Source of the DNA: Desmodesmus armatus
Taxonomy: Eukaryota > Chlorophyta > Chlorophyceae > Sphaeropleales > Scenedesmaceae
Length of the DNA stretch: 64,000 nt
Reading direction: 5' to 3'
Assembly: GCA_007449985.2 (NCBI GenBank)
Contig: VIIQ02000066.1
Span: 1-64,000 of the forward strand
Shown: positions 16,366 through 33,828 of the stretch, one piece after another
Numbering within the stretch: the stretch's first letter is position 1
Layout: every line of letters begins with the position of its first letter
Notes under the pieces: model-generated
What the model was told of the DNA's origin: nothing
The model's database searches: none
The model's input: the letters and a program-made list of their open reading frames with translations, nothing else
Position numbers and translations under genes: made by a program

Positions 16366-19176
16366 TTATAGCAGCTGTCTTGGAGCTGCCGCAGCATGAT
16401 GCAAGAGTAAGATGAACAAGGTTTGTCCCCTCACCTTCATATTGGCTGGCAGAGAGCGTGCGATCTGCTTGGGATGCGGGAGGTTGAGGTTTTTCATGAT
16501 CGCAATGAACTCCTCCCTCGACTTTGTGAGCCGCGGGTTGTTGCGCTTCTCCTCCCCGATGCTACTCATGCAGCGCCCTTTGTAGTCATGACCTGGCATA
16601 CACCATACCAAACAAGAATGCAGCAGCAGGTTGGGTCAAAGACTGCATGACTGGTACATTGACACATGCTAGGCTGAATGGCGCCAATGCTGCTCATGCA
16701 TATGCAGCGCCCTTTGTAGTCATGCCCTGAGATGCGCAGTACAAACGCAGCGGCAAGCAGAGCATCAATAGCTTGGGTGACATTCAACATAGCCATGTCC
16801 AATCATTGCGCAGGCTGCGCAAACCTCAGCTCATGCGGCTTGTGTAGTAATGACCTGGCCATGTGGTGCGCAGTGTCACCACCGTAAGATGCTGAGCAGC
16901 ATGACATGATGCCCACTATGCTATGTAGCTACTGGCGTCTAGCGTCTATAGCAGGTCGACCGCACATACCTGGCAGCACCAGTGTGTCCTCTGGTAGGGT
17001 GAACAGCTTGGTGTGAATGTTGTCGTACAGCATGCCTGCACACACAAGCAGCGGAACACTTTGATCGATATCGTGACTCAACGTGTCACCGTGACACCTT
17101 GCCTTGGAGGCGAACAGCCTGAAAAGGCAATTTCTCACACTGATTGAGCCTTTGTTGGCTCCCCAAACAGGCGATGTTCTGTGTAACATCCAATTACTGA
17201 TTGGTGACGACCTGCCATTGTTGCACCACCGCCAAGCCTACCTGCATTGCCCTGCTGGAAGTCAGTCCTGCCGCAGCCCTTGATCAGCAGTGCATCTCCA
17301 GTGAACACCATGCCTGCTGCTCCCTGCTGCTGTGGAGGCAGGTAGAAGCACATGCAGCCATTGGTGTGGCCAGGGGTGGCAAGGCACCTGCGAAGGGGGG
17401 GGGGTGAAAAGAGAGGAGTAATAACTCATGCCGTTCAAGAGCGAAGGTGGAGCAGGAGAGGAGAGGAAAGGGCACAGAAGCACATGCATATGCAGCCGTT
17501 GGTGTGGCCAGGGGTGGCTAGGCACCTGGGGGTTGAAAGGAGGGGTGTGTGAGGAGAGACAGGAGGGAAGATTATCTTCATGTTGCTCAAGAGAGGTGGA
17601 GCAGGACTGGAGAGGAAAGGGCAAGAAGCACATGCAGCCATTGGTGTGGCCAGGGGTGGCTAGGCACCTGGAATGGGAGGAAGGGGGGGAAGGAGGGGGG
17701 GGCAGATGAGAGTTCATACGGCCTGTCTGGAGAGAATCAGATGCCGGTGTCAGCTGACACCTGATCAGCACATAGGCACTTCAGCAAAGGCTTTTGCCAT
17801 CTGGGTTTAGGGACTTCTCATCAGGCCGGCCTGACCTGATCCGCAGGCTCCCAACGTTGAGTGTATCGCCATCCTGCAGCTGCAGATCGCCAGCTGCTCC
17901 GCTTGCTGCTGCTATGGCGCTGCGCACCCCGGCCGCAATGCCTGCGAAACACAAGCAACAACAACGTGTTGTTCAATGTCGCGGCAGCTGAGGTGTGGGT
18001 GAGATCGCTTTGTGAGGTGTGCAGATACACTGTCCGTGCTGCATTTACTGGCTTGCAAGTACACGGCAGTTCGTACTGTGTGTGCAATACACACAAACAT
18101 TGCATCCTGTCCCGCCCTGTGTCTTTTTGAGTGCCAGTGGCGCAAATACTTGGCCTCACCTTGAGCTTTCCTGAACCGGTGATGTGGTCTGCGTGTGCAT
18201 GAGTGTTGGCAGCCAGCACCAATGTGACATCCAGGTCATCAACAACCTCCAAGTCTCGCTCAGCCTGCAGAACATGCCCAACGTGTGCGCACACATACAC
18301 AAAGTCGTCAGCATGAAATTGGTGTGATGCTTCTCCTGCTCTTAGCAATTCAGCCTGCAGAACATGCCCAACATGCATATAGTCGCCAGCACAGCATGGT
18401 GTGAGGTGTTGCCTGATAGCGGGGGGGGGGGGTACCGTAATGTCATCAGCCAGGGAAAAGCGGCAGTGCCAGGGGGGGGGGGGTACAAGTGGTTGAATAA
18501 TTTCGTCCCTTTTTGATATAGAAATGCTCAGTGCCGCTTCACTGACCTGTTCATACACAGGGTCGATCAGTATGGCCTCATAGGTGTCAGGGCAGGCAAC
18601 TAGCCTAGTAGGGTGGGAGGGGGGGGGGGGTAGGGTAACAAGTGGTCGATGCTTTCCTTCCTTTGTTACCCCAGGAACGCTGTGTGCCTCTGCACTGACC
18701 TGTTCATACACTGGGTCGATCAGTATGGCCTCACTGGTGTCAGGGCAGGCAACTAGGAAGGTGTAGGTACTGCTGGCCTCATCAAACAGCTGCCTGAAGA
18801 TCACACCGTTGACAACTGCAGAAAATGACATGGACATAAAAATGATGATGTTGATCGTTTTGAGTGGCTGCAGCTGCACACTTGAGGGGCAGGCCTGCAA
18901 AACTACTTCACAACAGCAGCGAGACGGTTGCCAACACAAGTTGTAGGCCAGCAGTTGGGCACGTTTGCCATCGGGTGCGGTTTGACATATGATATGGAAG
19001 CGTTACATGAATGCATGTAGTAGCAGCGGTGTAGTAGCTTTTTGCTTACGTGCAGGCTTAGCAATCCGCACTTGGGTTGCCTGGGGTGCCACTACTGCTG
19101 CCTTCACTGTCAGCACAGCATGCCGAGGGCGCACGTGTGCGCGAACCAGACAAGATTTCTGTTGACTCATAAGCAT
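16366..19176 (-). CDS. ETHE1: Persulfide dioxygenase (ETHE1-like, metallo-beta-lactamase fold)
   Basis: Model (minus strand): 19176-19050, 18815-18700, 18264-18150, 17941-17836, 17387-17242, 17035-16970, 16592 to about 16366; about 300 aa. It begins with an Arg-rich mitochondrial-type presequence (MLMSQQKSCLVRAHVRPRHA). VNGVIFRQLFDEASSTYTFL follows, then the metal motif THAHADHITGSG (His103, His105, Asp107, His108). Further ligands sit in ATPGHTNGC, FTGDALLIKGCGRTDF and HDYKGR. ETHE1 enzymes are mononuclear-iron dioxygenases that turn glutathione persulfide into sulfite plus glutathione in the mitochondrial matrix. The last few codons are uncertain: after PANMK the frame either reads on to a stop at 16366 or is spliced. 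The exon 3 donor (CCAA|GTATTT) was picked because it restores phase. Partial copies of exons 2, 3, 5 and 7 lie in its introns. It sits head to head with the BASS4-like gene and close to SQR and TauE, which work in the same pathway. Confidence 0.92.
16680..16858 (-). repeat. Tandem copies of ETHE1 exon 7 5' end
   Basis: The segment coding for GHDYKGRCMSSIG at 16592 is repeated at 16680-16732 (GHDYKGRC, then ICMSSIG), and again in decayed form at 16828-16858. Each copy carries its CAG acceptor. Confidence 0.7.
17150..17215 (-). repeat. Dispersed repeat shared with 34949-35012
   Basis: About 65 bases including TTACACAGAACATCGCC and GTTTGGGGAG are about 85-90% identical to 34949-35012 in opposite orientation. 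This copy lies in ETHE1 intron 5. Confidence 0.6.
17346..17672 (-). repeat. Three tandem copies of the ETHE1 exon 5 acceptor and start
   Basis: The sequence CAG|GTGCCT(T/A)GCCACC and on through the CCTGGCCACACCAA(T/C)G segment, coding CLATPGHTNGCMC, occurs at 17346-17390 (functional), 17481-17528 and 17625-17672. The copies are about 140 bases apart, separated by purine-rich sequence. Confidence 0.8.
18543..18605 (-). repeat. Tandem copy of the ETHE1 exon 2 3' end with donor
   Basis: This repeats 18697-18758 almost exactly, coding ACPDTYEAILIDPVYEQ and followed by the same GTCAGTG donor. Inclusion through the nearby TAG acceptor would give a premature stop, so it is probably not used as an exon. 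Confidence 0.75.
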
Positions 19177-19498
19177 CCTGTTTATTGTTGACTGACAAGA
19201 CCTGATATGGTGCTGTGCTTGTCTGGGACTCCCGCTGAGTCAAGCTCCTCAAGCGTGCAGATGTGCAGAATTCAGGCTTTCTTACGCAAATAAAAATTGG
19301 AATGAACAGTGGGCGTGTGAATGTAGGCACATACGCAGTTTCGGCTGTCTGTTATATACAGCGTGTACAGGGTGTCATATTTGATGACGAAACGGATTAT
19401 GAAGCCTGTTGGGCTGGATAATCCACCTTAGTTGACTTTACCGTAACAAAAACCATATCACTTGCTCGGCGCTGCATCTACGTCGGCCTCTGGAAAGC
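19177..19498. promoter_or_regulatory. Head-to-head promoter region, ETHE1 / BASS4-like genes
   Basis: About 320 bp separate the divergent start codons. It holds both 5' leaders and possibly a shared promoter. No motif is assigned. Confidence 0.5.
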
Positions 19499-33400: not shown

Positions 33401-33828
33401 GCGTGCATACCGGCATTTTGAACACTGGAACTCCCACTTGCTGTAGGCGACGGTGCTGTCCGCTGCCTATTTCAACGTAGTGCAGGAACAGTCAACCCCT
33501 GTGCTGCCACCGCTGCCCGCCCCCTGCGCAGGTGACCCTATTGATCAGCAGCAGCACATCAGCCATCGTATACGCAGTCAACGGGGCAGTTCCCTGGGAT
33601 TACGGCATCGTGCTGAGTATCATTGGCTTTGTTGCAACTTTATTGGGCCAATGGCTGGTCAGTTGGCTGGTGCGGCGGCTGGGGCGGCCCAGTATCCTCG
33701 TTTTAACGCTGGCGGTTATGTTTTCGGCGGCCACGTTTGCAGCAGCGGCAGTGGTGGTGCTGACGTTTGTGGATCTGGCGCAGCAGCCGCAGAAGTGGAC
33801 TGTGAGGAAGGGAGTGTGTCCTGCGTGA
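30409..33828 (+). CDS. TauE/SafE family sulfite exporter-like membrane protein
   Basis: Model: 30409-30673, 31064-31301, 31643-32338, 32444-32504, 32557-32740, 33053-33165, 33447-33452, 33532-33828; 619 aa; all introns GT-AG and in phase. A cleavable signal (AWLALLLTAACVIQAAAAAG) leads to the first TauE half, with FIASGAGVGGG|VLVVPSLLVI, ALSNITILASAIANLIFNVP and TVAGSIAGSYINMVIP. A cytosolic loop of about 200 residues rich in Ala and Gln follows. The second half has WVLVLSPLLVMLLVWAVA, ISAGVIAGMLGLGGGLVLAP, LLISSSTSAIVYAVNGAVP and a long hydrophobic end. The paired G-x-GGG motifs are the family's signature. TauE/SafE proteins move sulfite or sulfonates and related anions across membranes. Which membrane is used here is unknown; the signal peptide suggests the secretory route. 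The 6-nt exon 7 (Ala-Thr) is proposed because family members have AT before this strand. Confidence 0.88.
32069..32118 (+). repeat. Coding (CAG)n tract in the TauE/SafE loop
   Basis: About 15 CAG codons give a poly-Gln run in the cytosolic loop between the two TauE halves. Confidence 0.8.
33170..33255 (-). repeat. Dispersed repeat, inverted copy
   Basis: On the minus strand this reads ACAGTACAGTA, then GCACTAGCC, then AAGGGCTCATGAGGG, matching 4915-5005 and 48520-48600. It lies in TauE intron 6. Confidence 0.5.

What the first reader, a model, noticed from the sequence alone, without database searches (positions are those of the whole stretch)
16366..33828. Sulfide-oxidation gene cluster in a eukaryote: ETHE1, SQR and TauE/SafE within 17 kb
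Three genes for consecutive steps lie together: SQR (sulfide to persulfide, electrons to quinone), ETHE1 (persulfide to sulfite) and a TauE/SafE-type anion exporter (sulfite or organosulfur export). A BASS4-like transporter lies between. Key residues are intact: the SQR Cys204/Cys387 pair and FAD motif, the ETHE1 HxHxDH site, and the paired TauE GGG motifs. Pathway clustering of this kind is common in bacteria but unusual in algae. The rest of the window is unrelated in function, so chance is possible but not the simplest reading.
Basis: partly seen in the sequence, partly recalled or inferred. Interest (0 to 1): 0.9.

Follow-up and report, generated by a model that had tools for sequence, protein, structure and literature searches.

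The report
Conserved algal sulfide-oxidation gene cluster
A green alga carries side by side two genes predicted to encode enzymes that oxidise toxic hydrogen sulfide and two genes for transporters that would likely move the products out, and parts of this grouping appear to recur in related algae, so algae may have a dedicated sulfide-disposal gene cluster like those of bacteria.

Summary
Within 18 kb lie ETHE1 (minus), an SBF/BASS-like transporter (plus), SQR (minus) and TauE/SafE (plus), as two divergent pairs. SQR is complete in 10 exons, with the FAD motif and both catalytic cysteines. ETHE1 has 8 exons but an apparent one-base frame break at 17927-17930. SQR has no second match in the 115.8-Mb genome. 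The clustered ETHE1 belongs to a presequence-bearing clade, apart from two short copies elsewhere. Signs against chance: SQR and clade-A ETHE1 relatives sit on contigs of identical length in Monoraphidium minutum (281,988 bp) and a JGI contig (4,330 bp), SQR and the TauE orthologue on a 20,375-bp one; 0 of 9,797 non-algal SQR x ETHE1 row pairs share a length. The closest paralogues found for BASS and TauE are adjacent on another contig. Trees place SQR, and with thinner sampling ETHE1, in eukaryotic clades, so bacterial operon transfer is not supported. Most likely this is a eukaryote-assembled counterpart of bacterial sqr-pdo-tauE clusters: SQR and ETHE1 in an organelle, BASS and TauE as exporters. 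Substrates, location and co-expression are untested. Tight grouping is not seen in the Tetradesmus rows.

The parts
15991..19176 (-). ETHE1 (persulfide dioxygenase) gene, 8 exons: 19176-19050, 18815-18700, 18264-18160, 17941-17836 (frame break at 17927-17930), 17387-17242, 17035-16970, 16592-16435, 16017-15991; N-terminal presequence about 45 aa
   Evidence: model; PDB: plant and human ETHE1; homologues to 80% identity; PF00753
19177..19588 (.). 412-bp gap between the ETHE1 and BASS start codons, a shared divergent promoter region (inferred)
19589..22467 (+). SBF/BASS-like transporter gene: first exon 19589-20026; further exons, read by eye, about 20698-20855, 21147-21500, 21831-21946 and 22236-22467; 3' end not modelled
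   Evidence: PF13593 2e-32 on joined exons
25102..29864 (-). SQR (sulfide:quinone oxidoreductase) gene, 10 exons: 29864-29734, 29538-29436, 29136-29047, 28827-28714, 28345-28154, 27556-27437, 26932-26699, 26454-26403, 26199-26056, 25328-25102; 468 aa
   Evidence: PDB human SQOR 1e-110; alignment A1
29865..30408 (.). 544-bp gap between the SQR and TauE start codons, a shared divergent promoter region (inferred)
30409..33828 (+). TauE/SafE-family transporter gene, 7 exons incl. a 22-nt exon: 30409-30673, 31064-31301, 31643-32338, 32483-32504, 32557-32740, 33053-33165, 33532-33828; 604 aa; hydrophobic N-terminus resembling a signal peptide (by eye)
   Evidence: PF01925 8e-26, two stretches; algal relatives
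25285..25824 (-). tandem copies (4, one of them the real exon) of the start of the last SQR exon
17344..17680 (-). tandem copies (3 found, one of them the real exon) of the start of ETHE1 exon 5

Best explanation
Four neighbouring genes of a green alga encode homologues of sulfide:quinone oxidoreductase (SQR), persulfide dioxygenase (ETHE1) and two membrane transporters (SBF/BASS-like and TauE/SafE), and they are likely a conserved gene cluster for disposing of hydrogen sulfide. Inferred mechanism: SQR, carrying an N-terminal presequence, would oxidise sulfide in an organelle, pass two electrons to quinone and make glutathione persulfide. The presequence-bearing ETHE1 would then oxidise the persulfide to sulfite with O2. 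The BASS-like carrier would move the sulfur anion across the organelle envelope, and the TauE-type protein, which starts with a signal-peptide-like segment, would export it from the cell. Shown: gene order, catalytic residues of SQR and ETHE1, no second SQR match, two ETHE1 types, equal contig lengths in relatives, and the adjacent BASS-TauE paralogues. Inferred: linkage in relatives, compartment, substrates of both transporters, and co-regulation from the two divergent promoters.
For: Gene models and intact motifs. Solved relatives: human SQOR 1e-110, plant and human ETHE1 4.5e-71 and 4.9e-68. SQR matches nowhere else in the genome. Same-length contigs: SQR P0004 with ETHE1 P0127 at 281,988 bp (both named M. 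minutum); P0010 with P0138 at 4,330 bp; SQR P0071 with TauE P0244 at 20,375 bp. Control: 2 of 180 algal SQR x ETHE1 pairs share a length, 0 of 9,797 non-algal pairs. P0244's best match in the genome is the window TauE. The linked ETHE1s P0127 and P0138 fall in the same clade as the window's (9 algal rows, 95*), which leaves out the short type. Clade-A ETHE1s have 25-50 residues before xFRQL (7 of 7 with an N-terminus), short-type ones 6-8 (3 of 3); SQRs have 30-48 residues before DGYKV (6 of 6 with an N-terminus). The best paralogues found for window BASS and TauE are adjacent on C277. Of 80 bacterial SQR loci, 15 hold an ETHE1-like frame over 100 bits, 18 a weak TauE match, 8 both; sqr, pdo and tauE clusters are described in PMC9918477 and an ETHE1-TauE operon in PMC5823870 (passages seen).
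Against: Linkage in relatives rests on equal contig lengths, not on DNA read here. In T. obliquus the TauE (P0242, OEZ85_001057 among its names) and an SQR paralogue (P0007, OEZ85_001172) share a 4.55-Mb length but their numbers are 115 apart, and the ETHE1 with a contig (P0125, short type) is on a 7.64-Mb one; the nearer SQR P0005 is named from the other assembly, so its neighbours cannot be compared. No shared promoter word beyond chance. No expression data. ETHE1 frame break. TauE-family matches lie on 8 other contigs and SBF_like on 4 others, which makes their presence less specific. The genome also has Mo-co_dimer domains on three contigs, found in sulfite oxidases and nitrate reductases (family knowledge), so export need not be sulfite's only fate. 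C277 carries BASS-TauE without SQR or ETHE1, so the pair may have a job of its own. Most bacterial SQR loci fetched lack a strong ETHE1 or TauE match in the flanks held.
Confidence: 0.6

Rival explanations
1. Chance neighbourhood: ETHE1, SQR and a member of a large TauE family happen to lie close, and the story was picked after the fact.
Against: Chance of one given gene copy falling within 20 kb of SQR is about 3.5e-4, so about 1e-3 for three ETHE1 copies, before allowing for post hoc choice; the signs of recurrence on three other algal contigs and the paralogous BASS-TauE pair are independent of that choice.
Confidence: 0.12
2. Two separate units side by side: a mitochondrial-type sulfide-oxidation pair (SQR + ETHE1) and a BASS-TauE transporter pair with another anion substrate (for example bicarbonate, keto acid or organosulfonate), held together by shared divergent promoters rather than by a pathway.
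For: BASS-TauE occurs without SQR/ETHE1 on C277; CIA8, a Chlamydomonas SBF/BASS protein whose core aligns best with chloroplast BASS4 proteins, is linked to bicarbonate uptake (PMC5853530, passages seen).
Against: SQR sits between BASS and TauE and shares its promoter region with TauE; SQR-TauE linkage appears to recur on the 20,375-bp contig; [quoted passage not shown]
Confidence: 0.22
3. Horizontally acquired bacterial sqr-pdo-tauE operon.
For: Same gene content as bacterial clusters (PMC9918477, passages seen).
Against: Genes are intron-rich and on alternating strands; SQR groups with animals and fungi (100*) apart from 59 bacterial rows, 12 of them of the cyanobacterial group; ETHE1 groups with eukaryotes, against only 4 bacterial rows. 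TauE was not treed.
Confidence: 0.03

Closest known systems
Bacterial sqr-pdo-tauE clusters (for example Bacillus licheniformis yrkD-nreBC-sqr-pdo; bigR operon with DUF442-ETHE1 and TauE)
   Same: Enzymes for the same steps plus a TauE-type transporter encoded together; a divergent ETHE1/SQR arrangement with a weak TauE match beyond ETHE1 is also seen in two cyanobacterial loci (L056, L060).
   Different: Algal genes are spliced, on alternating strands, of eukaryotic ancestry for SQR and ETHE1, with presequences and an added BASS-like carrier; no regulator or rhodanese gene was recognised among the four, but none was specially searched for.
Eukaryotic mitochondrial sulfide oxidation (SQOR + ETHE1)
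   Same: Same enzyme families and catalytic residues.
   Different: Here the genes are physically clustered together with two transporters; the compartment is not established.
Conserved green algal gene neighbourhoods (317 reported, incl. arsenic detoxification with ArsJ; PMC7826186, abstract and word search)
   Same: Detoxification enzymes plus a transporter, conserved proximity in green algae.
   Different: Its main text has no mention of sulfide, sulfur, sulfite, persulfide, ETHE1 or TauE; supplements were not read, so a prior listing is possible.
CIA8 / BASS4 (SBF-like) chloroplast carriers
   Same: Both are SBF-like carriers: the window protein by PF13593, CIA8 by the words of PMC5853530 (passages seen).
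   Different: CIA8 is tied to bicarbonate; the window protein's substrate is unknown, and it was not compared with CIA8 or BASS4 sequences here.

Membership tests
Eukaryotic SQOR (sulfide:quinone oxidoreductase) | FAD-binding motif and the two redox cysteines | tested here: met
   G53/G55/G58, C204 and C387 invariant in A1, 11 sequences; aligned to human SQOR; role of the cysteines recalled
Eukaryotic SQOR (sulfide:quinone oxidoreductase) | Groups with eukaryotic SQORs, not bacterial ones | tested here: met
   22-row eukaryote clade 100* in an 81-row tree
Eukaryotic SQOR (sulfide:quinone oxidoreductase) | Sulfide-dependent quinone reduction | not testable with these tools
   needs enzyme assay
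ETHE1 persulfide dioxygenase | Metallo-beta-lactamase domain with the ETHE1 iron-site motifs | tested here: met
   HAHADH, PGHTNG, FTGDALL aligned to 2gcu and 4chl; PF00753; role of the residues recalled
ETHE1 persulfide dioxygenase | Uninterrupted reading frame | tested here: inconclusive
   one-base frame break at 17927-17930 in the assembly; an alternative donor keeps frame
TauE/SafE (PF01925) | Over the Pfam cut-off, two stretches with Gly-rich motifs | tested here: met
   91.5 bits vs 32.6, two stretches; GAGVGGG and GLGGGL
TauE/SafE (PF01925) | Sulfite or organosulfur export | not testable with these tools
   needs transport assay
SBF/BASS-like carrier (PF13593) | Over the Pfam cut-off | tested here: met
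   113.2 bits vs 25 on joined exons
SBF/BASS-like carrier (PF13593) | Membership of the BASS4 branch in particular | not tested
   no BASS4 or CIA8 sequence was compared
Conserved pathway gene cluster in green algae | Linkage of the same orthologues in other species | tested here: inconclusive
Conserved pathway gene cluster in green algae | Co-expression | not tested
   no RNA data at hand
Bacterial sqr-pdo-tauE operon (transferred) | Bacterial ancestry of the genes | tested here: not met
   for SQR (59 bacterial rows), for ETHE1 (4 bacterial rows); TauE not treed

The most novel reading that the evidence does not exclude
The cluster is a plastid sulfide-oxidation unit of Sphaeropleales: SQR and the presequence-type ETHE1 work in the chloroplast, SQR feeds electrons from sulfide into plastoquinone (sulfide-driven electron flow in a eukaryotic alga), BASS releases sulfite from the chloroplast and TauE from the cell. 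It arose in a eukaryote from native genes, converging on the gene set of bacterial sqr-pdo-tauE operons.
Probability: 0.2. Interest if true: 0.9.

Novelty: new variant of a known kind. Interest (0 to 1): 0.62.

Why it matters
Land plants are thought to lack SQR (recalled), and how green algae cope with sulfide seems little studied: in six searches on algae or sulfide oxidation (judged from the titles and abstract starts listed, not every paper found) no paper on an algal SQR-ETHE1 cluster appeared. A eukaryotic cluster that matches the bacterial sulfide-detoxification set, but is built from eukaryotic genes plus two likely exporters, would be a clear case of convergent gene clustering. It gives four named genes with which to test sulfide oxidation, sulfite export and possible sulfide-driven plastid electron flow in algae.

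Tried and rejected
Bacterial operon transfer: rejected for SQR and, with only 4 bacterial rows, for ETHE1. SQR derived from the cyanobacterial plastid ancestor: the best prokaryotic hit is a Synechococcaceae record at 46%, but the tree puts the algal clade with animals and fungi. Shared promoter motif: the longest common word is 9 bases, reached in 171 of 200 shuffles; 12 shared 8-mers against a mean of 9.4, reached in 53 of 200. Search for the algal SQR P0010 in viral contigs: nothing. The short ETHE1 copies on C555 have no SQR, BASS or TauE match on their contig. Targeting: presequence composition was counted but no predictor is on hand, so chloroplast versus mitochondrion stays open.
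Full report
What was checked. The window lies in contig C62 of a 115.8-Mb genome in 831 contigs, by its nearest named relatives (Monoraphidium, Tetradesmus, Raphidocelis) a green alga of the Sphaeropleales kind. Spliced models were built by hand from the sequence and translated. ETHE1 runs on the minus strand from 19176 to 15991 in eight exons; its first exon encodes a presequence that lines up with relatives such as P0123. SQR runs on the minus strand from 29864 to 25102 in ten exons (468 aa). 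TauE runs on the plus strand from 30409 to 33828 in seven exons (604 aa), one of them 22 bases long. An SBF/BASS-like transporter starts at 19589 on the plus strand; its 3' end was not modelled. The order is therefore ETHE1 and BASS divergent (412 bp between start codons), BASS and SQR convergent, SQR and TauE divergent (544 bp). I recognised no other gene inside, though the stretch between BASS and SQR was only looked over as open frames.

Quality of the genes. SQR matches human SQOR over its length (1e-110), and G53/G55/G58, C204 and C387 are invariant in an alignment of 11 algal, fungal, animal and bacterial sequences. ETHE1 matches plant and human ETHE1. As assembled, ETHE1 has a one-base frame break in exon 4: relatives read GSGKLK-ALRPG-VRSAI or close to it, and the window has the two halves in different frames at the G run 17927-17930. 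The other exons are open. It is most simply an assembly error, but a lesion or use of an alternative donor is not excluded.

Copies in the genome. SQR matches only C62 at E up to 0.001. ETHE1 has, besides the window copy, two tandem copies on C555, which match the short type P0129 better than the window type. TauE-family matches fall on eight other contigs, SBF_like on four others. The closest paralogue found for the window BASS is on C277 (six pieces, five at 57-73% and one short one at 41%; the next best loci, on C18 and C571, are at 32-42%). The closest found for the window TauE is also on C277 (best E 1.4e-25, four pieces at 41-58%; next C564 at 2.4e-13 with 38-49%; a single 44-residue piece on C48 is 61%). 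The two are neighbours: BASS about 71.1-67.9 kb and TauE about 64.9-59.5 kb, with a likely first exon near 66 kb by eye, same strand. No SQR or ETHE1 match lies in C277 45-85 kb. Landing within 10 kb of a given point has a chance of about 1.7e-4. BASS and TauE thus look like a unit that was duplicated together.

Linkage in other algae. No algal genome could be read here, but the protein search gives the length of the longest contig behind each row. SQR P0004 and ETHE1 P0127, both named Monoraphidium minutum, are on contigs of 281,988 bp. SQR P0010 and ETHE1 P0138, both from JGI, are on contigs of 4,330 bp. SQR P0071 and TauE P0244, both from JGI, are on contigs of 20,375 bp. Among rows with a length (113 of the 120 SQR and 112 of the 120 ETHE1 rows listed), 2 of 180 algal SQR x ETHE1 pairs share a length and 0 of 9,797 non-algal pairs do; of the six TauE lengths two are shared with algal SQR rows and none with non-algal ones. 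P0244 finds the window TauE first in this genome, before the C277 copy, so I take it as the orthologue. Against this, in Tetradesmus obliquus the TauE P0242 (OEZ85_001057 among its names) and an SQR paralogue P0007 (OEZ85_001172) share a length of 4,553,750 bp but, if numbers run along the sequence, lie 115 genes apart, and the ETHE1 with a contig, P0125, is on one of 7,636,537 bp and of the short type. The nearer SQR P0005 (5,918,163 bp) is named from the other assembly (OEZ86), so it cannot be set beside them; the presequence-type T. obliquus ETHE1, P0126, has no contig listed. For Raphidocelis subcapitata an ETHE1 is listed but no SQR among the best 120.

Ancestry. In a tree of 81 SQRs the nine algal ones form a clade (100*) inside a eukaryotic clade with animals and fungi (100*), apart from 59 bacterial rows, 12 of them of the cyanobacterial group. 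In a tree of 38 ETHE1s the window copy, P0127 and P0138 are in one algal clade of nine (95*); the short type (P0125, P0129, P0130) lies outside it, in a wider algal group of 12 (98*); two ulvophyte rows (P0154, P0182) fall elsewhere among eukaryotes; and the only four bacterial rows form a separate side (95*). The clustered type has 25-50 residues before the conserved core in 7 of 7 relatives with an N-terminus, the short type 6-8 in 3 of 3, and SQR has 30-48 in 6 of 6 with an N-terminus. So SQR and this ETHE1 likely both go to an organelle, perhaps the same one; which is not settled. I suspect the chloroplast from V-x-A/C-like motifs before the SQR core, a recalled feature of algal chloroplast presequences, not a test.

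What it works like. [quoted passage not shown] Of 80 bacterial SQR loci fetched, 15 hold an open frame over 100 bits to an ETHE1 profile in the flanks held, 18 a weak TauE match (20-46 bits) and 8 both; in Calothrix and Mastigocoleus ETHE1 is divergent to SQR with a weak TauE match beyond. The algal cluster has the same contents but not, for SQR and ETHE1, the same origin. The best reading is a eukaryote-made sulfide-disposal cluster: SQR to persulfide, ETHE1 to sulfite, BASS out of the organelle, TauE out of the cell. The last two steps are the least certain: the Chlamydomonas SBF/BASS protein CIA8 is tied to bicarbonate (PMC5853530, passages seen) and the C277 pair lacks the enzymes.

Literature. 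Searches listed no paper describing this cluster in an alga, judged from titles and abstract starts of the papers listed (some searches found more papers than they listed). Word searches inside PMC11089139, PMC7042703 and PMC12466478 gave passages on cyanobacteria, none on an algal cluster. PMC7826186 (abstract and word search) reports 317 conserved neighbourhoods in green algae, without the sulfur terms I searched in its main text; its supplements could not be read, so prior listing there is possible.

Noticed in passing
window 25285-25824, 17344-17680 and 18501-18756: Both SQR and ETHE1 carry tandem, partly decayed copies of exon edges (4 copies at the last SQR exon, 3 at ETHE1 exon 5, 2 at ETHE1 exon 2), as if exon ends with their splice sites were repeatedly duplicated; alternative exons are possible.
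   Followed up: partly
window 17927-17930: Apparent one-base frame break in ETHE1 exon 4 within a G run.
   Followed up: partly
G000:C277 59.5-71.1 kb (L026, L027): Second BASS-TauE pair, adjacent and on the same strand, without SQR or ETHE1; a serine-carboxypeptidase-like and an aquaporin-like frame lie nearby (by eye).
   Followed up: yes
G000:C555 63-78 kb (L109, L110): Two tandem ETHE1 copies of the short, presequence-less type.
   Followed up: partly
window 50969-53770: Minus-strand retroelement with reverse transcriptase and endonuclease domains.
   Followed up: no
window 40978-41901: Glycosyl hydrolase family 81 fragment on the minus strand, the nearest segment to the right for which a Pfam family was found among the six segments tried.
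   Followed up: no
The four named green algal SQR rows among the best 120 are from Monoraphidium or Tetradesmus; no Chlamydomonas, Volvox or Chlorella SQR is listed, hinting at a patchy distribution in green algae.
   Followed up: no
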